Below, piece by piece: positions 2,591 through 34,394 of a DNA stretch of 35,403 nt. How positions within the stretch are numbered: the stretch's first letter is position 1; each line of letters begins with the position of its first letter. The stretch covers positions 1-35,403 of the forward strand of contig JAJYXE010000045.1 in the NCBI GenBank assembly GCA_021791145.1. Direction: 5' to 3'. A model generated the notes under the pieces. That model did not search any database. It was not told the origin of the DNA and saw only the letters and a program-made list of their open reading frames with translations. This stretch comes from Actinomycetes bacterium (GTDB taxonomy: Bacteria > Actinomycetota > Acidimicrobiia > Acidimicrobiales > RAAP-2). A program made the translations under genes and the position numbers.

Positions 2591-3484
2591 ATGGAGAGAA
2601 GAGCTGAGCCGAGGTTCGAAGGCGTGTACGTGGCCATCGCCACGCCTTTCGGTCCGGACGGCGCGCTCGATCTCGACGCACTGGGTCGGAATTGCGAGCA
2701 GTTGATCGAGCGCGGGGTCCACGGCATCGTGCCGTGTGGTTCGCTCGGCGAGTACGAGGCGCTGACCGACGACGAGCGCTCGGGCGTCGTCAAGGCGACC
2801 CTGGACGCAGCAGCCGGACGCGTCGAGATCGTACCGGGGGTCTCGGGCAAGTCCGCCGCGGAGGCCCGGCGGTGGGCGGACGCGGCGGCCTCGCTCGGAT
2901 GCCGAGCCGTCATGTGCCTCCCCCCGACCGCGCACACGCCGACCCCTGACGAGGTCGTCGCCCACTTCGACGAGGTGGGACGGACCGGAGTCGAGATCAT
3001 CGCCTACAACAACCCCTTCTCGACCCGCGTGGACCTCACCCCGAGCCTGTTGTCTCGTCTGGCTGAGAACGACGCGATCGTGGCCGTGAAGGAGTTCTCT
3101 CAGGACGTCCGTCGAGTCGCGGCCATTCGTCAGTCGGCTCCTCGCCTCCAAGTCATCTGTGGTTGCGACGACACCTACGTCGAGGCGGCCCTCATGGGCG
3201 CGACGTGCTGGATCGCCGGGTTCGCCAACGCTTTCCCGGCGGCGTCGGTCGAGCTCCACGGCCTCTGCCGTGCTGGCCGGTGGGACGAAGCGATCGGCCT
3301 CTACCTGCGGATGCTCCCGCTTCTGCGCTGGGACGCGGACCCACGATTCGTGCAGGCGATCAAGCTTGCGATGGACGAGACGGGCTTCGTCGGCGGCGCG
3401 GTCCGCTTGCCTCGGCTGCCGCTGGTGCCCCAAGACGCCGACCAGGTCCGCCACCAGGTCCGCCAATTCGTCGAGAGCGATTGA
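2591..3484 (+). CDS. DapA-family lyase, probable pyrroline-4-hydroxy-2-carboxylate deaminase
   Basis: A 297-residue member of the dihydrodipicolinate synthase/N-acetylneuraminate lyase family, (beta/alpha)8 barrel Schiff-base enzymes. The family marker GTTGE appears as GSLGE at residues 50-54. The catalytic tyrosine is Y139 in IAYNNPFSTRVDL and the Schiff-base lysine is K167 in AVKEFSQD. True DapA is unlikely because the gene heads an operon with a hydroxyproline epimerase and dehydrogenase. In that setting the homologue (LhpC/HypD type) deaminates delta-1-pyrroline-4-hydroxy-2-carboxylate to alpha-ketoglutarate semialdehyde. The start ATG follows GGAGG with 7-base spacing, and the stop shares one base with the next ATG (TGATG), indicating translational coupling. 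The fold is certain; the substrate is inferred from context. Confidence 0.88.
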   Translation: MERRAEPRFEGVYVAIATPFGPDGALDLDALGRNCEQLIERGVHGIVPCGSLGEYEALTDDERSGVVKATLDAAAGRVEIVPGVSGKSAAEARRWADAAASLGCRAVMCLPPTAHTPTPDEVVAHFDEVGRTGVEIIAYNNPFSTRVDLTPSLLSRLAENDAIVAVKEFSQDVRRVAAIRQSAPRLQVICGCDDTYVEAALMGATCWIAGFANAFPAASVELHGLCRAGRWDEAIGLYLRMLPLLRWDADPRFVQAIKLAMDETGFVGGAVRLPRLPLVPQDADQVRHQVRQFVESD

Positions 3485-4497
3485 TGCGGTCGAGCCTGGT
3501 CGTCACCGCCGTCGACAGCCACACCGAAGGCATGCCGACGCGGGTCGTGACGGGAGGGTTCGGCGAGCTGCCGGGCGACACCATGGCCGATCGGCGGCTC
3601 TACGTCATCCACGAGCGCGACCACATCCGCCGCTTCCTCATGCACGAGCCGCGCGGGCACAGCGCGATGTCCGGCGCCGTCCTGCAGCGACCCACGCGCC
3701 CGGACGCCGACGTCGGCGTCGTGTTCATCGAAGTGTCGGGATGCCTCCCGATGTGCGGGCACGGCACCATCGGCGCCGCCACCGTGCTCGTCGAGACCGG
3801 CATGGTCGAAGTCAAGGAGCCCGAGACGGTCATCCGCTTCGACACGCCCGCCGGGCTCGTCAGCGCCTCGGTCGACGTGCAGGAGGGCCACGCGACGAGC
3901 GTCACCATCCGCAACGTCCCGGCCTACTTGCACCTGCGCGACGCGACGGTCGAGGTTCCCGGCATCGGCCCCGTGGTGCTGGACCTCGCATGGGGCGGCA
4001 ATTTCTACGCCATCTTGCCCGCGGCGGCACTCGGCCTCCAGGTCGACCCCGGCGCGCACGACCAGCTGATCCAGGCAGGTCTCGCCGTCATGGCCGCGGT
4101 CAACGACCAGCTGCAGTTCTGTCACCCCGAGCACACCACGGTCGACTACTGCCACCACGTCATGCTCACCGAACCAGGCGACGGCGAGGTGTCCGGGCGG
4201 GCCGCCACCGCGATCCACCCGGGCTGGCTGGACCGCTCACCGTGCGGCACGGGCACGAGCGCCCGCATGGCGCAGCTCCACGCCCGGGGGGCGCTCGGTC
4301 TCGAGCAGGACTACGTCCACGCGTCGGTGATCGGCTCCCGCTTCGTCGGACGGCTCCTCGGCACGGCGAAGGTCGGCGAGTTCGACGCGGTCCTGCCGAG
4401 CTTCCGGGGCAGAGCCTGGATCACGGGCCTCGCCAGCTATCTGCTCGACCCCGACGACCCCTACCCGACGGGGTTCCTGCTCGGCCGACAGGATTGA
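3484..4497 (+). CDS. proline racemase family, 4-hydroxyproline 2-epimerase
   Basis: A 337-residue cofactor-independent racemase/epimerase. Both catalytic cysteines are present: C91 in PMCGHGTIGAA and C254 in RSPCGTGTSARMA. Two cysteines distinguish racemases/epimerases from the related trans-3-hydroxyproline dehydratases, which replace one with threonine. The N-terminal VDSHTEGMPTRVV is also family-typical. Such enzymes interconvert trans-4-hydroxy-L-proline and cis-4-hydroxy-D-proline, the first step of bacterial hydroxyproline catabolism. The downstream D-amino-acid type dehydrogenase and upstream deaminase support that role over proline racemase. The ATG overlaps the upstream stop by one base, and the stop overlaps the next gene's TTG. 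Confidence 0.92.
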   Translation: MRSSLVVTAVDSHTEGMPTRVVTGGFGELPGDTMADRRLYVIHERDHIRRFLMHEPRGHSAMSGAVLQRPTRPDADVGVVFIEVSGCLPMCGHGTIGAATVLVETGMVEVKEPETVIRFDTPAGLVSASVDVQEGHATSVTIRNVPAYLHLRDATVEVPGIGPVVLDLAWGGNFYAILPAAALGLQVDPGAHDQLIQAGLAVMAAVNDQLQFCHPEHTTVDYCHHVMLTEPGDGEVSGRAATAIHPGWLDRSPCGTGTSARMAQLHARGALGLEQDYVHASVIGSRFVGRLLGTAKVGEFDAVLPSFRGRAWITGLASYLLDPDDPYPTGFLLGRQD

Positions 4498-5699
4498 GCG
4501 AGCTCGCCGGCCCGAAGTGGAGCGACGAGCTCCCTGCGGGCGCAGACGTCGTGGTCGTGGGCGCCGGCATCGTGGGCGCCGCCATCGCCGCCCGACTGGC
4601 GAGGGCCGGTGCGGAGGTGTGCCTCCTCGAGCGATCAGGGCCCGCCGCCGGTTCCAGCTCGTCAGGAGAGGGCAACCTGCTCGTCTCGGACAAGCTCCCG
4701 GGCCCGGAGCTGGACCTCGCGCTGCGCAGCCTCGTCCTCTGGCAGGAGGTCGACGCCGAGGCCGCCGAACGGATCGAGCTCGAGCGCAAGGGCGGGCTCG
4801 TGGTGGCGTGGGACGAGGCGCAGCTCGCGGCGCTCCAGGCCCTCGCCGCGGCACAGGAGGCCGCCGGTGTCGCGATCCGCCACCTGGGCGGCACCGAGCT
4901 CGTCGACGCCGAGCCGCACCTCAGTGGCGAGGTGGCCGGGGCGGTCTTCTACGAGGCCGACTCCCAGGTACAGCCGATGTACGCGGTCGCCCACCTGCTC
5001 GCGCAGGCCGCGGCCAATGGCTGTCGAATGATGCGGGGTACCGAAGTGTGCGGGTGGCGTACCACTCCGAGGGGCTCGCAGGCGCTCGAGACGACGCTCG
5101 GGTCGCTACGGGTCGGCACGGCGGTCGTGAACGCCGCGGGGTCCTGGGCGGGAGAGCTCGCCGCGCGCTTGGGATCCGACCTCCCTGTCGCTCCGCGCAG
5201 GGGGCACGTGCTCGTGACCGAGCCGATGCCCGTCGTCACGGCCCACAAGGTCTACGAGGCCGACTACGTGGGCTCGATCCACGACCAGGACGACGGATGG
5301 CGCTGCTCGAGCGTCGTGGAGGCGACCGCCAGCGGCACGATGCTGCTCGGCTCTTCCCGTGAGCTCGTGGGCTGGTCGGCGGTGCCGGACCCCCAGATCG
5401 TCGCCAGCATCGCCGCGAGGGCGATCAGGCTGTTCCGGGGGCTGGCCGCCGCCAAACTGCTGCGGACGTACGTGGGGTTCCGGCCTGCGACGCCCGACCG
5501 GCTCCCGGCGATCGGATGGGACGCTCGCGTCCCTGGGCTGCTGCACGCGACCGGCCACGAGGGTGCGGGCATCGGCCTTTCCCTCGCGACCGCCGAAGCC
5601 GTGCAGTGCCTCCTCTGCAAGACGGTGCCACCGGTAGGGCTGCAACCCTTCGATCCGGCTCGCTTCTCGAAGACGACCGAGACCCGACCGGAGCCGTGA
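4494..5699 (+). CDS. DadA-like FAD oxidoreductase, probable D-hydroxyproline dehydrogenase catalytic subunit
   Basis: A 401-residue FAD-dependent DAO-family enzyme. The dinucleotide-binding motif GAGIVG is at residues 23-28, followed by E46 (LLERSGPAAG) for the FAD ribose. The C-terminal GFRPATPDRLPAIGW and ATGHEGAGIGLSLATAEAV blocks are conserved in DadA, glycine oxidase and HcnC/LhpB-type subunits. It most likely oxidises cis-4-hydroxy-D-proline to the pyrroline and passes electrons to the iron-sulfur partner encoded next. The start is taken as TTG at 4494, overlapping the upstream TGA (TTGA). It is the only candidate that leaves the FAD motif intact, but its ribosome site is weak. Exact substrate (D-hydroxyproline, D-proline or both) is inferred. 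Confidence 0.87.
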   Translation: MSELAGPKWSDELPAGADVVVVGAGIVGAAIAARLARAGAEVCLLERSGPAAGSSSSGEGNLLVSDKLPGPELDLALRSLVLWQEVDAEAAERIELERKGGLVVAWDEAQLAALQALAAAQEAAGVAIRHLGGTELVDAEPHLSGEVAGAVFYEADSQVQPMYAVAHLLAQAAANGCRMMRGTEVCGWRTTPRGSQALETTLGSLRVGTAVVNAAGSWAGELAARLGSDLPVAPRRGHVLVTEPMPVVTAHKVYEADYVGSIHDQDDGWRCSSVVEATASGTMLLGSSRELVGWSAVPDPQIVASIAARAIRLFRGLAAAKLLRTYVGFRPATPDRLPAIGWDARVPGLLHATGHEGAGIGLSLATAEAVQCLLCKTVPPVGLQPFDPARFSKTTETRPEP

Positions 5700-5700
5700 T

Positions 5701-7515
5701 GTGACAGACCTCGAGGTGCACTTCACGTTCGACGGCCGGCCGCTCGAAGCCCCGCTCGGTGCGAGCGTCGCGTCCGCCCTTCTCGCCAACGGGGTCCGGT
5801 CCTGGCGTCGCACCCGGTCGACGGGCGCAGCGCGCGGGCTCCTGTGCGGGATCGGCAACTGCTTCGACTGCCTCGTCGACGTGGGCTCCGCGCACGCGGT
5901 GCGCGCGTGCGTCACGCCGCTGCACGAGGGCGACGCGCTCCGCACGTCGGTGTCGCGGGGCTCCATCGAGGTCGGGCCACTCGAGAAGCGCTCTGGCGAA
6001 GACACGGGGGGCGCCAGGGCGGCGGGGAACGCCGCACGAGCGCTGCGCGGTGACGTCCTCGTGGTCGGGGGAGGTCCGGCGGGACTGGCGGCCGCCGAGG
6101 CCGCGATCGGACGCGGGGTCTCGGTCGTGCTCGTCGACAATGCAGCGCGACTAGGAGGCCAGCTGTACCGCCAGCCATCGTCGGACCAGACAGGAGGTGC
6201 CAGGCCGATCGGCCCCCAGCTCGCGGCTCGCCATCCGAGGCTCGCCGACCCACCGGGGCTCGTCGTCGCCACCGGGGCCGCGGTCTGGCAGCTCCGCGCC
6301 GCACCGGGCGGCGTCGTCGCGTGGCTGGAGGATGGAAGACGGGTCCAGGCGACCGCCGCGGTGCTCGCCCCGGGCGCCACCGAGCTCCTCGTCCCCTTCC
6401 CCGGCTGGGAGCTGCCGGGCGTGGTCAGCGCAGGCGCCGCCCAGTCCCTGCTCAAGGCGCACGGTCAGCTGGTCGGTCGCCGGCTGCTGGTCGCGGGGTC
6501 CGGTCCGTTCCTCTTCCCGGTCGCCACCAGCCTGGCGGACGCCGGTGCCGAGGTCCTCGCCGTCGTCGAAGCCTTGCCGGCCGGCCGGCTGACGCCGATC
6601 TTCGCGGCGCTGGCGCACCATCCGAGCAAGGCGAGCGAGGCTGCCGCCTACGTCGCCTCCCTCGCCCGGCGCGGCGTCCCCATCCGGACCAACCGGGTGA
6701 TCGCACGCTGCGAACCAGGGAGCGACGGCGCGCTGCGGCAGGCGGTGGTCATCCCGACTGTAGAGGCGCGCGACGGGTTCGGATCCAGGGACTTCCGCGG
6801 GCGCGTGTACGACGTGGACGCGGTCTGCACCTCCTATGGGTTCGTCCCGCGCCTCGAGCTCGCCCGGCAGCTGGGTGTGGACGAAGTGCGTCTTCCTGGG
6901 CAGCCGTTCTCAGCGGTCGCGTGCGACGCCGCCCAGGCCACCTCCGTGCCCGGCGTCTTCGCCGCAGGCGAAGTGACCGGCATCGCCGGCGGAGAGGTGG
7001 CTGCGCTCGAAGGCTCGGTGGCGGGCGCCTCGGCTGCTGCCTACTGCCTCGGGCGGGCGCTGCGGGCTCAGGACGGCTGCAGCCCTTCAGACGATGGCGG
7101 CGATCGTCACCCCGGCGTGACGATCGGCCGGAGGCTGCGGCGGGCTCGACGGTTCGCAGAGCGCCTCAGCCATGTGTACGGTCACTCCGTCCCGCTCGGG
7201 CTCATCAGTGACGAGACGGTCGTGTGCCGCTGCGAGGACGTGCACGCAGGAGCGATCTTCGCCGCACTCGGCGCCGGAGCGATGACGGCGAGGGAGGTGC
7301 GGAATGTGACGCGTTGCGGGATGGGTTACTGCCAGGGGAGGACCTGTGGTCCCCTGGTGCAGCTGATCCTGGCCGAGGCGCTCGGTACCGGCACCTCGCA
7401 GGTCGGCGACCTGCACAAGCGCCCCGTGGCGACTCCCGTCCCGCTCGCGGTGGTCGCGCAGGTTGCGAGCCCAGGTATGGGGACGGGGACGTCCACTGCA
7501 ACGACGAGCTCGTGA
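5701..7515 (+). CDS. fused [2Fe-2S]-FAD/NAD-BFD oxidoreductase, D-hydroxyproline dehydrogenase electron-transfer subunit
   Basis: A 604-residue three-part protein. Residues 1-85 form a plant-type [2Fe-2S] domain with cysteines C49, C54, C57 and C70. Residues about 117-480 form a pyridine nucleotide-disulfide type FAD domain (GGGPAG at 123-128, GGQLYRQ, later GVFAAGEVTGIAGG). Residues about 505-560 form a BFD-like [2Fe-2S] domain with C509 and C511 (CRCED) and C539, C544 and C549 nearby. In LhpBEF or HcnABC-type dehydrogenases the first [2Fe-2S] domain is often a separate small subunit; here it is fused. The GTG start lies one base after the previous stop, with GGAG upstream. With the DadA-like subunit it should form a membrane- or quinone-linked dye-reducing dehydrogenase complex. 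Confidence 0.88.
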   Translation: MTDLEVHFTFDGRPLEAPLGASVASALLANGVRSWRRTRSTGAARGLLCGIGNCFDCLVDVGSAHAVRACVTPLHEGDALRTSVSRGSIEVGPLEKRSGEDTGGARAAGNAARALRGDVLVVGGGPAGLAAAEAAIGRGVSVVLVDNAARLGGQLYRQPSSDQTGGARPIGPQLAARHPRLADPPGLVVATGAAVWQLRAAPGGVVAWLEDGRRVQATAAVLAPGATELLVPFPGWELPGVVSAGAAQSLLKAHGQLVGRRLLVAGSGPFLFPVATSLADAGAEVLAVVEALPAGRLTPIFAALAHHPSKASEAAAYVASLARRGVPIRTNRVIARCEPGSDGALRQAVVIPTVEARDGFGSRDFRGRVYDVDAVCTSYGFVPRLELARQLGVDEVRLPGQPFSAVACDAAQATSVPGVFAAGEVTGIAGGEVAALEGSVAGASAAAYCLGRALRAQDGCSPSDDGGDRHPGVTIGRRLRRARRFAERLSHVYGHSVPLGLISDETVVCRCEDVHAGAIFAALGAGAMTAREVRNVTRCGMGYCQGRTCGPLVQLILAEALGTGTSQVGDLHKRPVATPVPLAVVAQVASPGMGTGTSTATTSS

Positions 7516-8962: not shown

Positions 8963-8994
8963 GGAGCGACCGATGAAAAGGAGCGACCGATGAA
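8963..8994 (+). promoter_or_regulatory. duplicated ribosome site and start with six-codon leader ORF
   Basis: The 15-base string ggagcgaccgatgaa occurs at 8963-8977 and again at 8980-8994. Each copy has GGAG plus an ATG. The first ATG (8973) opens a six-codon frame, MKRSDR, whose TGA (8991-8993) overlaps the second ATG (8990) as ATGA. The second is the start of the amidohydrolase. This looks like a tandem duplication that created a coupled leader peptide. Confidence 0.6.
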
Positions 8995-10252
8995 GAGGAT
9001 GGGAAGAAGCGGGGTCCTCGTCCTGAGCGAGGCGATCGTGATCACCGCGACCGGTGCAGAGCCGTTCGAGGGTGCCGTCGTCGTGGAAGAAGATCGCATC
9101 GTCGACATCCTGGAAGGTGCAAGCGACGGGGGTGACGCGCCCGATGGCGCCAGGGTCGTGCGGCTCGCAGGGCGCAGCCTGATCCCCGGACTGATCGACG
9201 CCCACGTGCACGCGGCCGCGGTCGACGCCGACCTGGCCGGCCAGGCCCACCGACGCTACGAGAGCGAGGTCGCGCTGCTCGCGGGCGTCTCGCTCGAGAG
9301 GATGCTGGCACGCGGTTTTACCACGGTGCGTGATGCAGGTGGTGTCGACGCGGGGTTCCGGCGGGCGATCGAGAGCGGTGCGATCGCCGGACCACGGCTG
9401 CTCGTCTCGGGCCGTCCGCTCACCCAGACCGGGGGGCACGGAGACCAGCGGATGCCGGCGGAGATCTCGACCCTCGGTGGTTGCGCTCCGCACGTGGGCA
9501 TGGTCCACGCGCTCGCAGACGGACCGGACGAAGTGCGCCGGACCGCGCGGGAGGAGCTGCGCCGGGGCGCGGACCAGGTCAAGGTCATGGCAGGCGGCGG
9601 CGTCGTCTCGCCGGCCGACAGGCTCGAGTCGGTGCAGTACTCCTACGAGGAGCTGGCGGCGGCTGTCGCTGCGGCCAGCGCCGCAGGGAGCTACGTGCTC
9701 GCGCACGCCTACACGCCCCAAGCGATCCAGGTGTGCGTCGAAGCGGGCGTTCGGTCCATCGAGCACGGCAACCTGCTCGACGAGCCAAGCGCGAAGCTCA
9801 TGGCAGCGCACGGCACCTACCTCGTCCCGACCCTCGTGACCTACGAGAAGCTCCACGAAGAAGGAGAGCAGCACGGGATCGCAAAGGAGAGCTTGGACAA
9901 GCTCGAGCGTGTGCTGGACGCCGGCCTGGAGAGCCTGCGCATCGCGACCCAAGCCGGCGTGAAGATCGCCTCGGGGTCGGACCTGCTCGGACCGATGCGC
10001 CGCTACCAGGGAGAGGAGATCGGGATCAAGGCCAGAGCGCTCTCGTCGATGGGTGCGATCGTCGCCGCGACGCGCACCAACGCCGAGCTGCTCGGTCTCA
10101 CAGCCGAGATCGGCACCATCGAGCCTGGCAAGGTCGCAGACCTTGTCGTCGCCAACGGGAACGTCCTCGAGGATCCCGCCCTGCTCGGCCGCGCCGATGG
10201 GATCGGGCTCGTGGTGCAGGCCGGGAAGGTGGTGCACGAGCGCCTCTCCTGA
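8990..10252 (+). CDS. metal-dependent amidohydrolase (Xaa-Pro dipeptidase/imidazolonepropionase-like)
   Basis: A 420-residue amidohydrolase-superfamily enzyme with the full binuclear metal set: H72 and H74 (DAHVHA), K198 as the bridging lysine (DQVKVMAGGG), H239 (LAHAYT), H259 (IEHGN) and D331 (ASGSDLLG). The C-terminal IEPGKVADLVV is typical. The subgroup holding the G-K-V-MAGGG motif includes carboxypeptidases for Xaa-Arg/Lys and prolidases for Xaa-Pro, so a dipeptide or cyclic amide substrate is reasonable. It has no signal peptide and should be cytoplasmic. It sits between the hydroxyproline enzymes and the importer/hydantoinase genes, compatible with releasing proline or hydroxyproline from an imported conjugate. 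The start ATG follows AAGGAG at 7 bases. Substrate unproven. Confidence 0.88.
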   Translation: MKRMGRSGVLVLSEAIVITATGAEPFEGAVVVEEDRIVDILEGASDGGDAPDGARVVRLAGRSLIPGLIDAHVHAAAVDADLAGQAHRRYESEVALLAGVSLERMLARGFTTVRDAGGVDAGFRRAIESGAIAGPRLLVSGRPLTQTGGHGDQRMPAEISTLGGCAPHVGMVHALADGPDEVRRTAREELRRGADQVKVMAGGGVVSPADRLESVQYSYEELAAAVAAASAAGSYVLAHAYTPQAIQVCVEAGVRSIEHGNLLDEPSAKLMAAHGTYLVPTLVTYEKLHEEGEQHGIAKESLDKLERVLDAGLESLRIATQAGVKIASGSDLLGPMRRYQGEEIGIKARALSSMGAIVAATRTNAELLGLTAEIGTIEPGKVADLVVANGNVLEDPALLGRADGIGLVVQAGKVVHERLS

Positions 10253-10482: not shown

Positions 10483-11511
10483 ATGAACCTCACGCGACGG
10501 GCAATGCGGATGGCGGGGGCGGTCATGGTCCTCGCGGGTGTCGGAGCGACGCTGCCTGCGCTCTCACAGGGCACTGCAGCGGGAAGCACCGCGAAGAAGC
10601 AGGTCAACCTGGCGTTCTTCGGCTACTCGGCGGCGAATGCGTACACGCAGGCTGCGCTCTTGGGGGTGAAGGACGTCGCGAAGAAGTACGGCGCGAGCGT
10701 CACCGTCTACACGCCGACAGCGACAGCGACAAAGCAGGAGGCGCAGGTCGAGGACGCCGCCACGTCGGGGAAATTCAATGGCATGGTGGTGTACTCGGTG
10801 TCCGGTGACGCGGTCGTCCCGGGTGTGAAGGAAGCCATCGCCAAAGGCATCAAGGTAGTGGCGGACTTCGTCGCGATCGGCCCGACAATCAACGCCATCA
10901 AGCCTCAGGTGAAAGGCCTCTCCGGAAGCGTCATCGCGCCGATCGACGAGACCGGCACCGCGTCGGGCGACCTGGTTGTGAAGGCCTGCACGGGGATCGA
11001 TCCGTGCCACGTCGTCTACCTGACCGGGACAGCAAAGCTCCCCCTTACAGTCGACCGCACCGACCACTTCATGGCGGTCATCAAGAAGCACGCCAACATC
11101 CACATCGTGGGAACGATCACAGGCGGCTACACATCGAGCAAGGGGTACGCAGCTGGAGAGGACGCGCTTTCCGCCCATCCGACAGTCAACGTGATCGCTT
11201 CACCGGCGGACCAGGCGATCGTCGGCGTGGAGGAGGCGGTCAAGCAGGCCGGCGATCTCAAGAAGGTCAAGCTCATCGGGGGCGGCGGCACCTACCAGGC
11301 GATCGCCGGTCTCAAGAGCGGGGACTGGTTCGGCACCGTGAACTACTGCCCCACCCGCGAAGCCGAACGCGCCACCCGGATCGACATCCAGGCCGTCCTG
11401 GGGCAAAAGGTAAAGCAACCCTACGTGAACAGCTTGACCCTTTGCGGAGCTCCGCTGGAGCTCACCAAGTCGAACGTCGGCTCGTACAAGGGAGAGTGGA
11501 CGGCCGGATGA
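10483..11511 (+). CDS. ribose-type ABC transporter substrate-binding protein
   Basis: A 342-residue exported binding protein of the periplasmic-binding-protein type I, sugar-like (Peripla_BP_4) family. An n-region MNLTRRAMRM and a hydrophobic stretch AGAVMVLAGVGATLPAL form a Sec signal peptide, with likely cleavage near residue 33. No lipobox cysteine is present. The mature part has two lobes; four cysteines (C169, C175, C289, C321) could form disulfides. It is clearly homologous to the second binding protein at 28299-29402, sharing AIKPQVKG, VVYL-G-LPLTV-RT, GGYT-S-G and LSAHPTVNVI. It should capture the extracellular ligand for the ATPase and permease that follow. The ATG at 10483 is preceded by CAGGGGGGCGAG. 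The ligand need not be a sugar given the gene neighbourhood. Confidence 0.9.
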   Translation: MNLTRRAMRMAGAVMVLAGVGATLPALSQGTAAGSTAKKQVNLAFFGYSAANAYTQAALLGVKDVAKKYGASVTVYTPTATATKQEAQVEDAATSGKFNGMVVYSVSGDAVVPGVKEAIAKGIKVVADFVAIGPTINAIKPQVKGLSGSVIAPIDETGTASGDLVVKACTGIDPCHVVYLTGTAKLPLTVDRTDHFMAVIKKHANIHIVGTITGGYTSSKGYAAGEDALSAHPTVNVIASPADQAIVGVEEAVKQAGDLKKVKLIGGGGTYQAIAGLKSGDWFGTVNYCPTREAERATRIDIQAVLGQKVKQPYVNSLTLCGAPLELTKSNVGSYKGEWTAG

Positions 11512-13119: not shown

Positions 13120-14126
13120 CGGGCCGGTCCACCGTGACACCCGAGCAGCTCGACGCGCCGACCGCGCGGCCGTTTCGTCGGCTGCCCCTCCCGGCCCTCC
13201 CGGGCCTGAAGAGAGCCCAGGACTACGCGATCGTCGTGATCTTCCTCCTCCTGTTCATCGCCTTGAGCCTCTGGACGAGCGCCTTCCTGACGAAGACGAA
13301 CCTCGTCAACGTGCTCGACCAGAACGCCGCCATGGGAGCCCTGGCGCTCGGGGAGACGTTCGCGATCATCAGCGGCAACTTCGACCTGTCGGTGGGGTCC
13401 GTGTACTCGTTGGCGGGCATCGTCGGCATCATGCTCGTTCCCGTGCTGGGTCCCGTGTCGGCGTGCGTCATCGCAGTCCTGTGCGGAACCGTGCTCGGCA
13501 TCATGAACGGCGGGCTTGTCGTCCTGGGCCGTGTGCACTCGTTCATCGCAACCTTGGCGACCCAGTACATCATCTACGGCCTGGCACTGGTGGTGACCGG
13601 TGGAGTGATCGTCCTGGACACGAACCCTGGTTTCCTGGTCGTCGGGCAGGGACGTGGCGGAGGGGTCGAGTGGGCGGTCTGGATCATGCTCGGCTTGGCA
13701 ATTGCAGCAGGACTGCTTCTTGCCCGCTCGGTGTTCGGTCGGTACGTGTACGCCGTCGGCGGCAACCGGGAGGCGGCGAGGCTCTCGGGTGTCCGGATTG
13801 GCTTCGTCGTCGTCGCCGCCTTCGCCATCAGCGGAACCACCGCTGCGATCGGCGGCATCCTGGCAGCATCTCTGGTCGGCACCGCTCAGGCCGGGACCGG
13901 GACGGGATTGGTCCTGCCCGCGATCGCCAGCGTCATCATCGGCGGCACCAGCATCTTCGGCGGCGAAGGAGCCATCTGGAGGACCGTCCTCGGCGTGCTC
14001 CTCTTCGCAATGATCGGCAACGGCTTCGCCCTTTTGAGCTTGAACGCGACGTACCAGGAGATCGTCGAAGGCGCGCTGATCATCATCGCGGTGGTCGCGG
14101 ACGCATGGGCGAGGTCGGGAACGTGA
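13116..14126 (+). CDS. ribose-type ABC transporter permease
   Basis: A 336-residue integral membrane protein of the BPD_transp_2 (RbsC) family, with about nine to ten hydrophobic segments from residue 38 on. The family marker near the first third is present (ETFAIISGNFDLSVGSVYSL), as are VHSFIATLATQYI, YAVGGNREAARLSGV and the late IIGGTSIFGGEGAIWRT loop that contacts the ATPase. It should form a homodimer channel with the ATPase and binding protein encoded upstream. The ATG overlaps the ATPase stop by four bases. A cytoplasmic N-terminal extension of about 35 residues rich in proline and arginine precedes the first helix. It is the paralogue of the permease at 25726-26709. Confidence 0.92.
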   Translation: MTGRSTVTPEQLDAPTARPFRRLPLPALPGLKRAQDYAIVVIFLLLFIALSLWTSAFLTKTNLVNVLDQNAAMGALALGETFAIISGNFDLSVGSVYSLAGIVGIMLVPVLGPVSACVIAVLCGTVLGIMNGGLVVLGRVHSFIATLATQYIIYGLALVVTGGVIVLDTNPGFLVVGQGRGGGVEWAVWIMLGLAIAAGLLLARSVFGRYVYAVGGNREAARLSGVRIGFVVVAAFAISGTTAAIGGILAASLVGTAQAGTGTGLVLPAIASVIIGGTSIFGGEGAIWRTVLGVLLFAMIGNGFALLSLNATYQEIVEGALIIIAVVADAWARSGT

Positions 14127-20727: not shown

Positions 20728-20841
20728 ACGAGGCCCACTCGGAACCGTTGTGCGGATGGGGAGAGCCCGCGCGAGGGGTTCACGAGCTCGGCCGCCTGCC
20801 AGGCATTCGCGCACCTGTACGTCAGCACGCGCAGCTGTGCG

Positions 20842-25100: not shown

Positions 25101-25706
25101 GAGCGCCGACAGCTTCACCGAGACGCACTCGACATCTGGCAACTCGACGAGCGCCTGGATCATCCGGCTCCGCCGTGCGGCCTGGCCTTCGCCCAGCACG
25201 GCCTCCCCGAGAAGGTTCACATTGCAGCGCATTCCCTCGCGGCGTCGGCGCTGGAGGTGACGGCTCAGGGGTCGCGGCTCCGCCGGGAGGACGAGGGTCT
25301 CCAGCTCGTGGCGCAGCCTCGCCGTGACGAGCCGCACCGTGAGGTCCGGGACCACGCGTGCCGCTCGTCTCGCGAGAAAGAGCGCGACCCGATCGAGGGG
25401 ACCGGCCATCGCGGGCGCCCGGTGGGCGGCGAGCAGCTCCTCCAATCGGGACGCCGCACGGCGACGTGTGCCGATCCGCAGGACTTGGTCGGTCAACGCC
25501 AAGAGGAGCTCGCGGCTGTCCTCGTCGTCGACGAGCCTTGCGACACGCGCACGGCGGCGGCGCTCGGCTCCGTCGATCGACGCCAACGCCTCCTGCAGCA
25601 GGCTCGTCGCCAGCTCCTCCGCCTGGGCGCAGAGGCGTTCGTCGTGCTCGCTCAGCGATGCGTTGCGCTCACCATCTGCCCTCGGGCGCGAAGCGTCGTC
25701 GGGCAC
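22173..25706 (-). CDS. putA: bifunctional proline dehydrogenase/L-glutamate gamma-semialdehyde dehydrogenase
   Basis: A 1177-residue PutA without the N-terminal ribbon-helix-helix repressor domain. The proline dehydrogenase barrel (about 120-470) shows VKLSALDSQLD, VNLDMEEYRDLHIT, VRLVKGANLAMERVE and the active-site YLVRRFDEN arginine pair. The aldehyde dehydrogenase domain (about 520-1000) has VVAPPWNFPYAIPAGG, E755 in HAETSGKNAY and C789 in GQKCSAAS. A further about 170-residue tail follows, as in other long PutA proteins. It oxidises L-proline to glutamate in two channelled steps, first FAD then NAD. GTG at 25706 is preceded by GGAGGGAGG. It begins 19 bases after the permease stop, so it belongs to the importer/hydantoinase transcription unit, tying that unit to proline. 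Confidence 0.95.
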   Translation of the reverse strand: MPDDASRPRADGERNASLSEHDERLCAQAEELATSLLQEALASIDGAERRRRARVARLVDDEDSRELLLALTDQVLRIGTRRRAASRLEELLAAHRAPAMAGPLDRVALFLARRAARVVPDLTVRLVTARLRHELETLVLPAEPRPLSRHLQRRRREGMRCNVNLLGEAVLGEGQAARRSRMIQALVELPDVECVSVKLSALDSQLDVLSYDQSRERVLTRLRPLVEAAARHRPVKLVNLDMEEYRDLHITVDTFLALGEEPELLDVTIGVAIQAYLPDSVGVLEQICASARKRRDAGGAPLRVRLVKGANLAMERVEAELRGWPLAPFESKELVDANYKRLLDIALAAENAGALKVGVASHNLFDVAWAIVVGRERGGDRVEIEMLEGMASPEAKAVARVTGGVLVYLPVVERGDFESAVAYLVRRFDENTAPENFLARLASLRPGSDAWEDQRLRFRAAVAHRHDPAPPSRRVTAAVARREGSEVSGFSNAADTDFSVVYNRSAVLDALAKLRQPLRSPVAAIVGAERVEVPAEGIGRDPSHPEVEWYRYVTSTPETVERAVAVARRAGSSWAATPVAERRRILRAVAERMEADRFRTIATMVRDAGKIVREADSEVSEAVDDARYYAELAVELPTHFGPHGTFEPYGVVVVAPPWNFPYAIPAGGVLAALAAGNAVILKPAPETVLTGALLVSQCHEAGVPAEVLQFVPCADDDAGRRLVTHPDVGAVVLTGAFDTARTFLQWRPDMGLHAETSGKNAYVVSAAADQEDAVRDLVHSAFSHAGQKCSAASLAIVEAPVYDDQRFRQRLADAVASLRVGPAEDPATAVGPLIRPPAGPLRRALTTLTPGEEWLVEPRQKPENPQLWSPGVKLGVAPTSFFHLTECFGPVLGVMRAKDLEEAVRLQNGTQYGLTGGLASLDEREVRFWERHVQVGNAYVNRHITGAIVRRQPFGGWKRSSVGSDAKAGGPNYVASFGRWQRSSGAPLELAFELEAVRVAADRLLRGVDESGLAAESNVFRLAPLRRAVLRLGTAPDAQVLELSLLVAGHLGVDVEVSAPPEVSERLAGAVRQESDEEFVRRMHAQRPERVRLVGCTPQLRLALLDACLELDVEPLVALGRYEMLRWAHEKAISTTRHRHGNVLRSASASRRDDSRPGRVDLAGGREGAHSPTRSGH

Positions 25707-25725: not shown

Positions 25726-26709
25726 CTACGTCGCCCGGCGACGGAGCAATTGGTCCAGACCGACGGCGACCAGGATGAGCCCGCCGAACACGATGTCCTC
25801 GTACACGGGGTTCATGTCGAGCAACACGAAGCCGTTGTTGATCAGCTCGATGATGACCGTCCCCACGACTGCGCGCCAGATCGCGCCTTCCCCGCCCATG
25901 ATGCTCGTGCCTCCGACCACGGTCGCGGCGATCGCCGTCAGTGCGAGGGTCGATCCCATCGTCGCGTCCGCCGAGCCTGCTTGCGACGCCCCGATCACCC
26001 CGGCCAGCGCTGCGCACGCCCCGCTGATGCCGAACACGAGAACTCGGTAGAGCCAGATCGAGACCCCGGAGAGCCGGGCTGCTTCGGCATTCCCACCGAT
26101 CGCGTAGAGGCCCCGTCCGAACCTCGTGTAGGCGAGGACGATCCCCGTCACGATCGCGACGCCGACGAAGCACCATGCGGCCACGGAGATGCCGCCGTAC
26201 ACGTTGTTCATCACCATGAAGTTGGCTGCACTGGTGGACGCGACGTTCCCTCCGGTCACGACGGTTGCGAGCCCAAGGATCACATAGCTCGACGCCAGCG
26301 TGGCGATGAAGCTGTTGACTCGGCCGAAGGTGATCACACCTCCGTTCCCCGCACCCACGGCGAATCCCACCGCGACCGCGACGACGAACGCGCCCAGCCA
26401 TCCGATCGAGGTCGAGAGCATCACCGCGACGATCCCGCAGAAGGCGTAGACCGACCCCTGGGAGAGGTCGAACCCGCCAGAGATGATCGTCATCGTCGCT
26501 CCGCAGGCGCCGATCCCCTCCCAGCTCATCTGGTTGAACATGTTCGCCACGTTGCCGAACGTGCGGAACGACGACGAGTCGATCGACAGTGCGACGACGA
26601 TCGCGATGACGAAGACCACGATCCCGAAGTCCCGTGCCGACACCCGGCGGCGGCTCGTACCGGCCGTCTCCACGACGCCAGGGACCAGCGCGTGCCGATC
26701 GACGGTCAT
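25726..26709 (-). CDS. second ribose-type ABC transporter permease
   Basis: A 327-residue RbsC-like membrane protein with about nine to ten hydrophobic segments beginning near residue 28. Family landmarks are TIISGGFDLSQGSVYAFCG, GRVNSFIATLASSYVILGL, LYAIGGNAEAARLSGVSIW and VVGGTSIMGGEGAIWRAVVG. It aligns along its length with the first permease (13116-14126). ATG at 26709 overlaps the ATPase stop by four bases (ATGA). It should pair with the ATPase and binding protein encoded upstream on this strand. Its stop lies 19 bases from putA. Confidence 0.93.
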   Translation of the reverse strand: MTVDRHALVPGVVETAGTSRRRVSARDFGIVVFVIAIVVALSIDSSSFRTFGNVANMFNQMSWEGIGACGATMTIISGGFDLSQGSVYAFCGIVAVMLSTSIGWLGAFVVAVAVGFAVGAGNGGVITFGRVNSFIATLASSYVILGLATVVTGGNVASTSAANFMVMNNVYGGISVAAWCFVGVAIVTGIVLAYTRFGRGLYAIGGNAEAARLSGVSIWLYRVLVFGISGACAALAGVIGASQAGSADATMGSTLALTAIAATVVGGTSIMGGEGAIWRAVVGTVIIELINNGFVLLDMNPVYEDIVFGGLILVAVGLDQLLRRRAT

Positions 26710-31204: not shown

Positions 31205-33244
31205 TCACTCACCGACGCTGATGACGAGGGCACCGAGCGGATCGACTCTCACCGCTGCTCCTGGCGGCACGACGGTCGTCGCGGTCTCCTCCAGCACCAC
31301 GACCGGTCCTTCGAGCTCGGCGCCGACCGGGAGCGCGGCGCGCCGGACGATCTGGGTCTCGTGCTCGGCACGACCGAACACGACCAGGCGTCGCTCCGCC
31401 TGCCACCGAGGATCGGGGTCGGGGGCTTTGGGCACCGGCTCGGGTCGGCCGAGGTCGCCGAAGACGGTGGTGCGCAACGCGACGACCTCCATCGGCGCAC
31501 CTGGGTTCGAGTGCCCGAACCGCCTGCGGTGCGCGGCATGGAAGCGATCACCGACGACGTCGACGAAGCTCTCGGCCCGGACCTCGTCCAGGTCTTCGAG
31601 CGGGACGACGAGCGTGTACTCCTGGCCCTCGTAGCGCAGATCCATGCTGTGCTCCACGCGGACCGCCGGCTCCGCGACCCCTTGGTCGAGGAGCGTGATC
31701 CGCCCTTCGCTCTCCATCTCGGCGAGCAGCTTCACCAGCTCCGCGCGGTCCGCGCCGGCGAAGGGCGCGTAGAAGGAGAGCGAGGAGTCCTTCCTGAGCT
31801 CGGTCTCGAGCATCCCCCACGCAGAGAACGCGCCGGGGAGCGGGGGGACGATCACCTCGTCGATCTCGAGCTCTCGCGCCAGGAACACCGCGTGCATCGC
31901 GCCTGCCCCACCGAACGCGACCAAGGAGAAGTCGCGCGGCTCGATGCCCTTCTCGACCGTGAGAGTCCGGATGGCTTGACCCATTTTGGCGTTCACGACG
32001 TCGCAGATCCCCTCAGCGAGCTCGACGGTCTCGAGGCCCAGGGCTTCTCCGAGCGACGCGACTGCCCTGCGGGCGGCGTCGACGTCAAGGGTCATGCGAC
32101 CGCCGGCGAACCAGCTCGGGTCGACACGGCCCAAGACGACGTTCGCGTCCGTCACGGTCGGGCGGGTCCCGCCTCGCCCGTAGGCTGCCGGCCCCGGCTC
32201 CGCGCCAGCGCTCTCCGGCCCGACTCGCAGGCCTCCTGCCTCCAGGTAGGCGATCGAGCCTCCTCCGGCACCGATGGTGTGGATGTTGACGACGGGCAGG
32301 AGGAGGGGGAACCCTTCGAGCGCGGTCTCGGTGGAGACGTCAGGACGACCGTCGACGACCAGGCTCACGTCGAAGCTCGTGCCCCCCATGTCGATGCAGA
32401 CGAGGTTCGGCCGACCGAGCAGACGAGCCAGCGCGACTCCACCCATGGTGCCCCCGACCGGCCCGGAAAGCAGCGTCTGGAGGGTCACGTCGCGCGCGGC
32501 GGCCGCGGAGACCATCCCCCCGCTCGACTGCATCACGTGCAAGGTGACCGAGAGCCCGCGCTCGACCATCTGGCGCTCGAGACGCTCGAGGTACCGGCGG
32601 ACGATCGGTCCGATGTAGGCATCGAGCACCGTAGAAGACGTTCGCTCGTACTCGCGCCACTCCCTCGCGACGGCGTGGGAGAGCGAGATCGACGTGTCCT
32701 CCCCCAGCTCCTTTCGCAGGATCTCGGCCGCGCGACGCTCGTGTGCCGGGTTACGGTAGCTGAAGAGGAACGCCACGGCGATCGACTCGAAGCCTTCTTC
32801 GCGGAAACGCGCGGCGGCGCGCCGCACGGCATCTTCGTCGAGAGGGCACCGTTCCTCCCCTGCGTAGTTCAGCCGGCCGCCGATCTCGATCGTGTCCCGT
32901 CGGGGCACCAACGGCGCCGGCTTGCGGTAGTGCAGGTCGTACAGGTTCATCCGAGGACCGCGCGCGATCTGGTACACGTCTCCGGTGCCCTCGGTGACGA
33001 GCAGGAGCACCCTGGCACCTCGGCGCTCGAGGAACGCGTTCAGCCCTTGGGTGGTCCCGTGCACGGTGAAGGAGATCTCCCCGGGGGAGTCGATGACCTG
33101 ATCGAGCGCTGCGAACACGCCTTCGGTCAAGTCCGCGGGCGTCGTCGACGACTTCGCCGCGGCGTAGGTTCTCGTCTCTTCGTCGTATGCGACGACGTCG
33201 GTGAAGGTGCCGCCGATGTCCATCGACACGCGGTATCGGCTCAT
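31205..33244 (-). CDS. hydantoinase/oxoprolinase subunit A
   Basis: A 679-residue HyuA-family ATPase. The N-terminal MSRYRVSMDIGGTFTDV and central CIDMGGTSFDVSLVVDG are the two phosphate loops of the actin/Hsp70 fold. LLSGPVGGTMGG, TIGAGGGSIAYLEAGGLRVG, PRDFSLVAFGGAGAMHA and the C-terminal RRFGHSNPGAPMEVV are characteristic blocks. It activates the ring amide of the substrate by phosphorylation for subunit B. ATG at 33244 overlaps the stop of the small upstream gene by four bases (ATGA), so the two are co-translated. It is the paralogue of the N-terminal third of the triple fusion on the other arm. Confidence 0.94.
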   Translation of the reverse strand: MSRYRVSMDIGGTFTDVVAYDEETRTYAAAKSSTTPADLTEGVFAALDQVIDSPGEISFTVHGTTQGLNAFLERRGARVLLLVTEGTGDVYQIARGPRMNLYDLHYRKPAPLVPRRDTIEIGGRLNYAGEERCPLDEDAVRRAAARFREEGFESIAVAFLFSYRNPAHERRAAEILRKELGEDTSISLSHAVAREWREYERTSSTVLDAYIGPIVRRYLERLERQMVERGLSVTLHVMQSSGGMVSAAAARDVTLQTLLSGPVGGTMGGVALARLLGRPNLVCIDMGGTSFDVSLVVDGRPDVSTETALEGFPLLLPVVNIHTIGAGGGSIAYLEAGGLRVGPESAGAEPGPAAYGRGGTRPTVTDANVVLGRVDPSWFAGGRMTLDVDAARRAVASLGEALGLETVELAEGICDVVNAKMGQAIRTLTVEKGIEPRDFSLVAFGGAGAMHAVFLARELEIDEVIVPPLPGAFSAWGMLETELRKDSSLSFYAPFAGADRAELVKLLAEMESEGRITLLDQGVAEPAVRVEHSMDLRYEGQEYTLVVPLEDLDEVRAESFVDVVGDRFHAAHRRRFGHSNPGAPMEVVALRTTVFGDLGRPEPVPKAPDPDPRWQAERRLVVFGRAEHETQIVRRAALPVGAELEGPVVVLEETATTVVPPGAAVRVDPLGALVISVGE

Positions 33245-33682: not shown

Positions 33683-33830
33683 GTCGGCCGTGGCGGAAGC
33701 CGTCCGCAGCTGGCCACGCACAACGAGACACCAAGGGCGCGATGGGAGTGGCTGGACCTGTCAGGGCCTCTGCGCCGGGCAATCTACGATCGCCAGTGGT
33801 CGGGGCCACGGCACGGCCCCCGGGGGAACG

Positions 33831-34394
33831 ATGACGACAGACGAAGTGGTGAGGAACGTGGGTCGCCAACTTCGGCGCATTCGACGCTCTCGAGGGATGA
33901 CGCTCGCCCAATTGGCCCGTCGGGCTGGCTGCACCGACAGCTACCTGTCGAGCGTCGAGAGCGGAGCGATCACCCCGACGCTGAGCTCGATCTCGACCCT
34001 CGCTGCCGTGCTCGGCGCCGACGTGAGCGCCTTCTTCCGTTCAGCTCCAGAGGAGAGAGTCCACGTCCAGCGAGCCGCGTCTTCGCGTCGCCTGCGGATC
34101 TCGCAGACCGCGAGCCAGACCTACACCATCTTGTCGTCGCGGAGGCTCGAGCCTTCCTTCACCGGCCTGATCGAAGACCTTGCACCGACTCCGGACGAGA
34201 CGTCCTACCGGTATTTCGGCGAGCGATTCCTCGTGATGCTCGAGGGCACGTTAACGGCGTGGATCGGCGCAGAGGAGTACACCCTCGGTCCCTTCGACAC
34301 GCTCCACTACTCTTCACACCCCGCGCACCTCGTCCGCGTCACGTCCCCCCAGCCGGCGCGCATCCTCTGGGTCGTCACCCCTGCGCTCCTGTGA
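33831..34394 (+). CDS. XRE-family regulator with cupin domain (first)
   Basis: A 187-residue protein. The helix-turn-helix spans about residues 8-62 (VGRQLRRIRRSRGMTLAQLA, then CTDSYLSSVESGAITPTLSS). A C-terminal cupin barrel follows at about 100-180 (YRYFGERFLVMLEGTLTAWI, then GPFDTLHYSSHPAHLVRV). XRE-cupin proteins usually sense a small catabolite or amino acid derivative in the cupin and control a neighbouring operon. It is divergent from the hydantoinase/importer/putA arm, whose promoter is about 150 bases away, so that arm is the likely target. ATG at 33831 follows CGGGGGAACG; longer in-frame openings upstream lack support. Confidence 0.9.
   Translation: MTTDEVVRNVGRQLRRIRRSRGMTLAQLARRAGCTDSYLSSVESGAITPTLSSISTLAAVLGADVSAFFRSAPEERVHVQRAASSRRLRISQTASQTYTILSSRRLEPSFTGLIEDLAPTPDETSYRYFGERFLVMLEGTLTAWIGAEEYTLGPFDTLHYSSHPAHLVRVTSPQPARILWVVTPALL

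What the first reader, a model, noticed from the sequence alone, without database searches (positions are those of the whole stretch)
2591..34394. Two convergent arms, each a CUT2 importer plus HyuA/HyuB plus Pro/Hyp catabolism: candidate scavenging island for cyclic-amide forms of proline and hydroxyproline
The left arm carries all four steps from trans-4-hydroxy-L-proline to alpha-ketoglutarate (epimerase, dehydrogenase, deaminase, KGSA dehydrogenase). The right arm carries PutA and a possible pyrroline-2-carboxylate reductase. Both arms have paralogous ribose-type importers and ATP-dependent ring-amide hydrolases, and the left has a possible Xaa-Pro dipeptidase. Together they could import a cyclic amide such as cyclo(X-Pro/Hyp), a prolyl hydantoin or an oxoproline, open it with ATP, release the imino acid and burn it. 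Such a dedicated system is not one I can name.
Basis: inference. Interest (0 to 1): 0.85.

Follow-up and report, generated by a model that had tools for sequence, protein, structure and literature searches.

The report
Importer-to-pathway island for proline cyclic dipeptides
A bacterium carries two paired sets of genes that look built to take up ring-shaped proline- or hydroxyproline-containing dipeptides, open the ring with ATP, split the dipeptide and burn the pieces; similar gene sets occur in other bacteria, but the actual substrate has not been tested.

Summary
The left arm (2591-19722, +) encodes the four-step trans-4-hydroxyproline pathway, a PucR regulator, a COG1228 amidohydrolase, a CUT2 importer and HyuA-HyuB. 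The right arm (33244-19777, -) encodes HyuA, HyuB, a second CUT2 importer, PutA and an OCD-family reductase. Most of the left arm is syntenic in an Acidimicrobiales MAG; similar kits recur in Amycolatopsis, Quadrisphaera, Streptomyces and Paractinoplanes, and SAR11-type genomes have HyuAB beside an M24 peptidase, cis-3-hydroxyproline dehydratase and PutA. Both window HyuBs fall in one clade; Pro/Hyp genes lie within 10 kb of 17 of 73 members against 4 of 122 outside. The closest solved relatives of the amidohydrolase include a prolidase; the binding proteins lack residues that hold sugars in ribose-binding proteins. I read the island as a scavenging system for cyclo(Xaa-Pro) and cyclo(Xaa-Hyp): HyuAB chemistry needs a secondary amide, so ring opening should yield Xaa-Pro/Xaa-Hyp, a prolidase substrate. 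The substrate is inference, and peptidase neighbours do not single out this clade (p = 0.47). The 1831-codon HyuA-HyuB-ALDH frame is probably a repeat-length variant.

The parts
2591..3484 (+). [quoted passage not shown]
   Evidence: PF00701; 84% identical syntenic copy in L131; 159 bits to DapA, below its cut-off of 206
3484..4497 (+). 4-hydroxyproline 2-epimerase / proline racemase family, Cys-Cys
   Evidence: PF05544; NF010578 361 bits, cut-off 376; MCGHG and SPCGTG motifs
4494..5699 (+). FAD-dependent D-amino-acid dehydrogenase subunit (DAO)
   Evidence: ThiO/D-amino acid dehydrogenase hits, below cut-offs; 76% identical syntenic copy; start codon uncertain
5701..7515 (+). 2Fe-2S / FAD / BFD subunit, predicted part of the D-hydroxyproline dehydrogenase
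   Evidence: PF13510, PF07992, PF04324
7616..8845 (+). PucR-type regulator
   Evidence: PF13556; start uncertain
8990..10252 (+). COG1228-type amidohydrolase, predicted Xaa-Pro/Xaa-Hyp dipeptidase
   Evidence: PF01979; closest solved chains 3mkv and 3feq/3n2c (named prolidase); motifs DAHVH, QVKVM, LAHAY, SIEHG, SGSDL
10483..11511 (+). CUT2-type substrate-binding protein, left arm
   Evidence: PF13407; 39% identical to the right-arm SBP; sugar-contact positions replaced
11593..13119 (+). CUT2 ATPase, left arm
   Evidence: PF00005, two stretches
13116..14126 (+). CUT2 permease, left arm
   Evidence: PF02653
14227..16308 (+). HyuA (ATP-dependent lactam-activating subunit), left arm; in frame with HyuB, boundary inferred
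   Evidence: PF05378, PF01968, PF19278; ATP motifs DIGGTFTD, DMGGT, GADPGP
16309..18111 (+). HyuB (metal-dependent hydrolytic subunit), left arm, boundary inferred
   Evidence: PF02538; metal-ligand motifs YEGRDC, GTHLHD, RAHWQD
18112..19722 (+). ALDH family, predicted alpha-ketoglutaric semialdehyde dehydrogenase, with its own ATG and SD-like AGAGGAGGAG
   Evidence: PF00171; NCBIfam hits shown all far below cut-off; homologues beside HypE-HPCD in L171, L193, L195
18068..18098 (+). three copies of an 11-nt repeat at 10-nt spacing just before the ALDH; copy number would set whether ALDH is in frame with HyuB
19777..20814 (-). OCD/mu-crystallin family, predicted pyrroline-2-carboxylate reductase; start uncertain
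   Evidence: PF02423; best NCBIfam PRK06141, 208.6 bits, cut-off 322
22173..25706 (-). PutA, proline dehydrogenase plus glutamate-semialdehyde dehydrogenase
   Evidence: PF01619 and PF00171; PRK11904 406.9 bits, below its cut-off of 747
25726..26709 (-). CUT2 permease, right arm
   Evidence: PF02653
26706..28247 (-). CUT2 ATPase, right arm
   Evidence: PF00005
28299..29402 (-). CUT2-type substrate-binding protein, right arm
   Evidence: PF13407
29426..31144 (-). HyuB, right arm
   Evidence: PF02538; metal-ligand motifs
31205..33244 (-). HyuA, right arm
   Evidence: PF05378, PF01968; ATP motifs
34427..35014 (+). XRE-type regulator, divergent from the right arm
   Evidence: HTH_31/HTH_3; a homologue precedes HyuA in L055. 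A cupin-like tail is my reading of the sequence; no cupin model was hit

Best explanation
The island imports and degrades cyclic dipeptides (2,5-diketopiperazines) that contain proline or hydroxyproline. Two CUT2-type importers with apparently non-sugar binding sites bring the cyclic dipeptide in. HyuA spends ATP to activate the only secondary amide of cyclo(Xaa-Pro) or cyclo(Xaa-Hyp), the Pro-CO-NH-Xaa bond, as a lactim, and the metal site of HyuB hydrolyses it. The product is the linear Xaa-Pro or Xaa-Hyp dipeptide. The COG1228 amidohydrolase, acting as a prolidase, splits it. Hydroxyproline then goes through epimerase, D-hydroxyproline dehydrogenase, deaminase and KGSA dehydrogenase to alpha-ketoglutarate; L-proline goes through PutA to glutamate; D-proline made by the epimerase or present in the substrate is oxidised by the same dehydrogenase and returned to L-proline by the OCD-family pyrroline-2-carboxylate reductase. 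Shown here: the genes, their families and main motifs, their paralogy, and recurrence of the association. Inferred: the substrate, the bond cleaved, the order of steps and co-regulation.
For: (1) Both window HyuBs lie in one clade (80 of 206 tips, support 98). Pro/Hyp genes (racemase family, HPCD, OCD, ProDH or c3HypD) lie within 10 kb of 17 of 73 usable members against 4 of 122 outside (Fisher 2.2e-5); OCD 12 of 73 against 1 of 122. Three of the four outside (L193, L195, L209) sit in islands that also hold a clade member. (2) Similar kits in other layouts: Streptomyces sp. NP160 (L193 with L172), Quadrisphaera (L195 with L168), four Amycolatopsis, Paractinoplanes. (3) In SAR11-type loci HyuAB is followed by an M24 peptidase whose best NCBIfam hit is PepQ (below cut-off), a cis-3-hydroxy-L-proline dehydratase above NCBI's cut-off (535.3 of 500) and PutA (1325 of 747); one representative of each was scanned. 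(4) The amidohydrolase is closest to 3mkv and to 3feq/3n2c, a sequence named prolidase in the PDB. (5) The binding proteins have replaced the N190, D215 and Q235 equivalents of ribose-binding protein (read by eye, residue list recalled). (6) All mechanisms considered for CapAB go through a lactim, which for a proline diketopiperazine predicts Xaa-Pro as product.
Against: No substrate was tested. Xaa-Pro peptidases do not single out the window's HyuB clade: 17 of 73 inside, 23 of 122 outside (p = 0.47); they extend to outside members at 36% identity or more (17 of 38) and are rare only in distant HyuBs (6 of 84). 56 of 73 clade members show no Pro/Hyp gene within 10 kb, and 29 of the 45 with at least 8 kb on both sides. 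In the sample from the order of G017, none of 43 anchors, the 4 closest included, has a Pro/Hyp gene. No peptidase was identified in the right arm itself. The SBP model matches only sugar-type CUT2 proteins among the 50 rows shown. HyuA and HyuB score far below the NCBIfam equivalog cut-offs, so family naming gives no substrate. Loci are related, so Fisher values overstate the evidence.
Confidence: 0.5

Rival explanations
1. HyuAB opens a pyroglutamyl ring: free 5-oxoproline, or pyroglutamyl-Pro/Hyp dipeptides, giving glutamate or Glu-Pro/Hyp, which the amidohydrolase then cleaves.
For: HyuA/HyuB belong to the oxoprolinase/hydantoinase superfamily. Glu-Pro would also be a prolidase substrate.
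Against: Free 5-oxoproline would not explain the prolidase or the hydroxyproline genes. Five of the top PF02538 scorers lie in open frames over 1200 codons (L151, L152, L154-L156; possibly true 5-oxoprolinases, not tested) and fall outside the window clade at 29-32% HyuB identity.
Confidence: 0.12
2. The two HyuAB pairs act on unrelated lactams or hydantoins, and the hydroxyproline and proline genes are only neighbours in a general catabolic island.
For: 56 of 73 clade HyuB loci show no Pro/Hyp gene within 10 kb; many Streptomyces members show only DUF917 or no marker.
Against: OCD or hydroxyproline genes recur beside the clade in Amycolatopsis, Quadrisphaera, Paractinoplanes, SAR11-type and Acidimicrobiales genomes in different gene orders, with 4 of 122 outside it.
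Confidence: 0.2
3. The substrate is a bicyclic prolyl or hydroxyprolyl hydantoin; HyuAB gives N-carbamoyl-(hydroxy)proline, which the amidohydrolase cleaves.
For: HyuAB is named for hydantoins; the top-scoring solved relative is an N-methylhydantoinase (7hk5); DUF917 (S-methyl-thiohydantoin desulfurase-like family) sits in many actinomycete loci.
Against: No carbamoylase was identified among the open frames scanned; M24 peptidases, the alternative partner in relatives, score best to PepQ (two representatives); prolyl hydantoins are not a known abundant nutrient (recalled).
Confidence: 0.1
4. The importers and prolidase handle linear Xaa-Pro/Xaa-Hyp peptides, and HyuAB serves another step.
For: Oligopeptide (Dpp-type) permeases accompany some relatives: 6 of 73 in the clade, 10 of 122 outside. 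One SBP relative (L135) has an M24 peptidase and no HyuAB in the fetched stretch.
Against: HyuAB is then unexplained, although the SBP subfamily and HyuAB travel together: 12 of 15 SBP places at E <= 1e-40 in 10 genomes (all chosen from HyuB loci) have a HyuB in the fetched stretch.
Confidence: 0.08

Closest known systems
ATP-dependent caprolactamase CapAB (Pseudomonas jessenii)
   Same: Best NCBIfam match for both HyuA and HyuB; ATP motifs and the Asp-His-Asp-His metal ligands conserved
   Different: Scores 508/257 and 512/287 bits against cut-offs of 1000; sits beside Pro/Hyp genes and an amidohydrolase, with no caprolactam pathway genes identified in the window
trans-4-hydroxy-L-proline catabolic clusters (4HypE, D-Hyp dehydrogenase, deaminase, KGSADH, P2C reductase)
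   Same: All four steps plus a P2C-reductase-like OCD, families as in the eLife 2014 neighbourhood study (PMC4113996, passages seen)
   Different: Placed with an importer, HyuAB and a prolidase-like amidohydrolase; the text of PMC4113996 holds no occurrence of hydantoin or oxoprolinase, nor does that of the Streptomyces HypR paper PMC6608401
COG1228 prolidases (3feq/3n2c, and 3mkv)
   Same: Closest solved relatives; shared LAHAYT, VPTLVTY and SDLLG stretches in the alignments, give or take a residue
   Different: Here encoded beside a ring-opening enzyme; activity untested. 3mkv is deposited as putative amidohydrolase; that it is a prolidase (Sgx9260b) is recalled
Ribose-type CUT2 importers
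   Different: Sugar-contact positions replaced: D215 equivalent is Gly in 18 of 18 aligned members, N190 equivalent Ser or Ala in 18 of 18

Membership tests
Caprolactamase CapAB equivalog (NF050156/NF050157) | score over NCBI's curated cut-off | tested here: not met
   HyuA 508.1 and 512.1, HyuB 256.8 and 286.7 bits; cut-off 1000
ATP-dependent HyuA/HyuB lactamase-hydantoinase superfamily | Hydant_A_N, Hydantoinase_A and Hydantoinase_B domains over the gathering scores | tested here: met
ATP-dependent HyuA/HyuB lactamase-hydantoinase superfamily | ATP phosphate and adenosine motifs in HyuA; Asp-His-Asp-His metal ligands in HyuB | tested here: met
   Motifs found in both copies, as described for CapAB; alignment to 6yra_B
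5-oxoprolinase | activity on 5-oxoproline | not testable with these tools
   No oxoprolinase equivalog among the NCBIfam hits; tree position apart from the top-scoring long HyuAB frames, whose own identity was not tested
trans-4-hydroxyproline catabolic pathway | 4HypE, D-Hyp dehydrogenase, deaminase and KGSADH encoded together | tested here: met
   Families present in one arm, Cys-Cys pair in the epimerase. The epimerase scores 361 against a cut-off of 376; dehydrogenase, deaminase and ALDH are named by family and context
Pyrroline-2-carboxylate reductase (OCD family) | score over NF004793 cut-off | tested here: not met
   208.6 against 322 bits, though it is the best hit; function named by family and context
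PutA equivalog NF008869 | score over cut-off | tested here: not met
   406.9 against 747 bits, best hit; both Pro_dh and Aldedh domains are present
Xaa-Pro dipeptidase, COG1228 type | closest solved relatives are prolidases | tested here: met
   3mkv 334 bits (putative amidohydrolase in the PDB), 3feq/3n2c 307 bits (named prolidase), next chain 173 bits
Xaa-Pro dipeptidase, COG1228 type | metal-site motifs kept | tested here: met
   DAHVH, QVKVM, LAHAY, SIEHG, SGSDL, aligned with 3mkv and 3feq; their role as metal ligands is recalled
Xaa-Pro dipeptidase, COG1228 type | score over NF051886 (XaaProDiPepCaul) cut-off | tested here: not met
   254.5 against 500 bits, best hit
CUT2 sugar importer | SBP, duplicated ATPase and BPD_transp_2 permease | tested here: met
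CUT2 sugar importer | sugar-contact residues of the SBP conserved | tested here: not met
   N190, D215 and Q235 equivalents replaced, Arg141 equivalent kept, read by eye from the profile alignments; the RbsB contact list is recalled

The most novel reading that the evidence does not exclude
A widespread dedicated pathway for peptidase-resistant proline and hydroxyproline diketopiperazines, in which an ATP-dependent HyuAB cleaves the single secondary amide and hands the obligatory Xaa-Pro/Xaa-Hyp product to a co-encoded prolidase; it occurs in Actinobacteria and, with a different peptidase, in SAR11-type marine bacteria.
Probability: 0.45. Interest if true: 0.8.

Novelty: new variant of a known kind. 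Interest (0 to 1): 0.6.

Why it matters
Proline diketopiperazines are common natural products that resist ordinary peptidases. Perzborn et al. 2013 (PMC3852281; abstract, first part of the Discussion and its section on general aspects read) detected no cleavage with 15 peptidases and eleven diketopiperazines, left the responsible enzymes unclear, and found no examined strain able to degrade cyclo(Pro-Tyr). If this reading is right, the island names candidate importer, ring-opening enzyme, dipeptidase and downstream pathway for that catabolism, with sharp predictions: Xaa-Pro as product, no action on cyclo(Pro-Pro) or cyclo(Pro-Hyp). It would also give a function to a clade of genes in the hydantoinase/5-oxoprolinase superfamily.

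Tried and rejected
Triple fusion HyuA-HyuB-ALDH as a Rosetta-stone link: rejected. A near-identical homologue, P0004 (1339 aa), leaves the frame at the repeat before the ALDH (its DNA was not seen, so the repeat as cause is inference), and the ALDH has its own SD-like site and ATG. No protein with both HyuB and ALDH domains appears among the 39 hits. The HyuA-HyuB frame is also single in L001.

Ectoine utilisation (EutC is OCD family, DoeA is M24): rejected. The OCD scores 92 bits to EutC against 208.6 to P2C reductase; the two M24 representatives score 93.7 and 61.7 to their better ectoine hydrolase model against 190 and 139 to PepQ.

Caprolactamase: rejected by equivalog cut-off. A test on Lys40 (said in PMC8453981 to be absent from oxoprolinases) was considered and dropped because I could not place that number on the aligned CapA chain.

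Peptidase neighbours as a clade-specific signal: not supported (17 of 73 against 23 of 122, p = 0.47).

SBP fold comparison: only sugar-type CUT2 proteins among the rows shown, so the fold does not discriminate ligand.

Promoter and terminator scan of 17500-26000 found nothing above chance. No tRNA and no Rfam match over gathering scores in the window.

Literature: ten searches., aimed at hydroxyproline plus hydantoinase, listed no title on such an island (20 of 47 and 10 of 21 papers shown). One search, for six names of a diketopiperazine hydrolase, found one paper, PMC6061476. A HyuAB-type cyclodipeptide hydrolase from Leifsonia is a vague memory that I could not confirm. The Sinorhizobium hydroxyproline/D-proline paper is recalled only (not held).
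Full report
What is there. I scanned 25 chosen open frames with Pfam, not every open frame. The left arm, + strand from 2591, runs deaminase, epimerase, two-part D-hydroxyproline dehydrogenase, PucR regulator, COG1228-type amidohydrolase, CUT2 binding protein, ATPase, permease, HyuA, HyuB and an aldehyde dehydrogenase. The first genes overlap by a few bases, as do ATPase and permease in both arms. The right arm, - strand, runs HyuA, HyuB, binding protein, ATPase, permease, PutA, a Gly-rich open frame with no Pfam match and an OCD-family reductase. The two arms converge 54 bases apart. Their HyuA, HyuB and importer proteins are paralogues (39-54% identity).

The long frame. HyuA, HyuB and ALDH form one 1831-codon frame here. 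A near-identical homologue, P0004, matches HyuA-HyuB, then leaves the frame just before the ALDH and ends at 1339 residues. The change falls at a repeat of 10-base period (three copies of 11 nt, 18068-18098); a different copy number is the likely cause, though P0004's DNA was not seen. The ALDH start is preceded by AGAGGAGGAG. I treat the ALDH as a separate gene. HyuA-HyuB is also a single frame in the Acidimicrobiales locus L001.

Is it conserved? One scan of genome contigs for HyuB kept the best 80 of 192 loci. In L001 and the same contig upstream (L131, genome G017), deaminase (84%), epimerase (86%), DAO (76%), Fe-S subunit (66-68%), PucR (85%), amidohydrolase (80%), importer (78-86%), HyuA (82%) and HyuB (89%) are syntenic with the left arm. 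No ALDH match follows HyuB there; an SDR-like gene does (label by reading). The same contig also carries an OCD (64%), a second racemase-family protein and a protein whose best NCBIfam hit is cis-3-hydroxyproline dehydratase (377 bits, cut-off 500). The right arm is matched in L055: XRE-type regulator 50%, HyuA 79%, HyuB 82%, binding protein 79%, ATPase 66%, permease 72%, then an amidohydrolase 66% identical to the left-arm one. The closest loci thus tie the amidohydrolase to both arm types.

Wider recurrence. I fetched the neighbourhoods of HyuB genes found in 16 genomes with PF02538 (stretches). These genomes were picked from the 80 loci, partly because of interesting neighbours, so their rate is not an estimate. 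In 9 of the 16 (G005, G006, G007, G008, G010, G012, G013, G014, G015) two HyuAB pairs flank a CUT2 importer; in 8 of these 9 (not G007) an amidohydrolase of the same family follows the second pair; in 6 of the 9 (G006, G008, G010, G012, G014, G015) hydroxyproline genes are seen. Streptomyces sp. NP160 carries DAO, Fe-S subunit, deaminase, epimerase, ALDH, amidohydrolase, HyuB, HyuA, importer, HyuA-like half, DUF917, PucR, HyuB, HyuA, OCD and PutA in one island (L193 with L172). In nine loci that I call SAR11-type (L007-L015; L007 is titled Pelagibacterales, the rest only Alphaproteobacteria or Proteobacteria) HyuB is followed by a small gene read as GAF-like and an M24 peptidase; the cis-3-hydroxyproline dehydratase family is in 7 of the 9, PutA in 6 and the CUT2 importer in 6, several of these contigs being short. 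One representative each of the M24, the dehydratase and PutA was scanned.

Statistics. From all fetched loci and the window I took 298 HyuB matches, 206 after removing duplicates. On a tree of these, the smallest clade holding both window HyuBs has 80 tips, support 98, all at least 50% identical to a window HyuB. Loci with under 6000 bases of flank in total were dropped, and the two window copies were not counted: 73 of 80 inside and 122 of 126 outside remain. Pro/Hyp genes within 10 kb: 17 of 73 against 4 of 122, p = 2.2e-5. The four outside are L187, L193, L195 and L209; the last three lie in islands that also hold a clade member. OCD: 12 of 73 against 1 of 122. ProDH: 4 of 73 against 0 of 122. 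CUT2 binding protein: 25 of 73 against 20 of 122, p = 0.0051. Xaa-Pro peptidase (amidohydrolase or M24): 17 of 73 against 23 of 122, p = 0.47, so this marker does not separate the clade; outside it splits into 17 of 38 for HyuBs of 36% identity or more and 6 of 84 for the rest. With at least 8 kb of flank on both sides, Pro/Hyp genes are near 16 of 45 clade members. Dpp-type permeases: 6 of 73 against 10 of 122, no difference. In the sample from the order of G017, taken by score without regard to neighbours (40 stretches, 43 usable anchors), the 4 anchors at 45% identity or more, which fall just outside the clade, all have an M24 peptidase and a Dpp-type permease, against 2 with an Xaa-Pro-type peptidase and 1 with a Dpp-type permease of the 39 others; none of the 43 has a Pro/Hyp gene. 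Loci are related, so p values are indicative; the fewest changes on the tree were 12 for Pro/Hyp genes, 20 for the peptidases and 19 for the CUT2 binding protein. Marker thresholds were set by me in the script.

Mechanism. CapAB is the lactamase of this family whose structure paper I read in passages. Its authors consider three mechanisms, all through an activated lactim (PMC8453981). A lactim needs an amide N-H. In cyclo(Xaa-Pro) and cyclo(Xaa-Hyp) the bond to the proline nitrogen is tertiary; only Pro-CO-NH-Xaa can be activated. Opening it gives Xaa-Pro or Xaa-Hyp, the substrate of a prolidase, which is what this island and many relatives appear to encode in one of two unrelated forms. This step is inference. 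The OCD fits D-proline salvage: eLife 2014 (PMC4113996, passages) assigns P2C reductase to OCD-family neighbours of the proline racemase superfamily.

What is known. PMC6061476 (passages) says that many genes annotated 5-oxoprolinase may be caprolactamase or cyclic dipeptide hydrolase genes. PMC3852281 (abstract and Discussion sections) reports that diketopiperazines resisted the peptidases tested and that the enzymes were unclear in 2013. PMC4113996 and PMC6608401 hold no occurrence of hydantoin or oxoprolinase. In my searches (calls listed under Tried and rejected) I saw no paper describing this island. Most subscription papers are not held, so absence from print is not established.

Verdict. 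All parts belong to known families; the assembly and the predicted function are new to me. Interest 0.6: a specialist would not find any single gene surprising, but the island makes an open question directly testable.

Noticed in passing
window 18068-18098: Three copies of an 11-nt repeat at 10-nt spacing would set whether the ALDH is in frame with HyuA-HyuB; a near-identical homologue (P0004) has a different frame there.
   Followed up: yes
window 20842-22020 (-): Gly-rich open frame with a signal-peptide-like start (by reading) between OCD and PutA; no Pfam match; unclear whether it is a gene.
   Followed up: no
L131:5499-14540: Beside the syntenic left arm in the Acidimicrobiales MAG: OCD, a Ser-Cys racemase-family protein, a cis-3-hydroxyproline-dehydratase-like enolase (below cut-off) and a branched-chain-type importer (by reading), suggesting 3-hydroxyproline use as well.
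   Followed up: partly
L007-L015 (for example L009:61-7669): SAR11-type genomes carry HyuA-HyuB and an M24 peptidase in one run, most also cis-3-hydroxyproline dehydratase and PutA.
   Followed up: yes
L164:3956-7784, L168:4617-8492 and similar: A conserved block of HyuA-like half protein, DUF917 (S-Me-THD-like) and PucR accompanies the importer in many actinomycete islands; DUF917 was not seen in the window. Role unknown.
   Followed up: partly
L135:700-5537: A relative of the binding protein with ATPase, permease and an M24 peptidase but no HyuAB in the fetched stretch.
   Followed up: no
window 10483-10560 and 29402-29300: Neither window binding protein shows a lipobox-like cysteine near its start, whereas many actinomycete relatives have an ACS motif there (by reading).
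   Followed up: no
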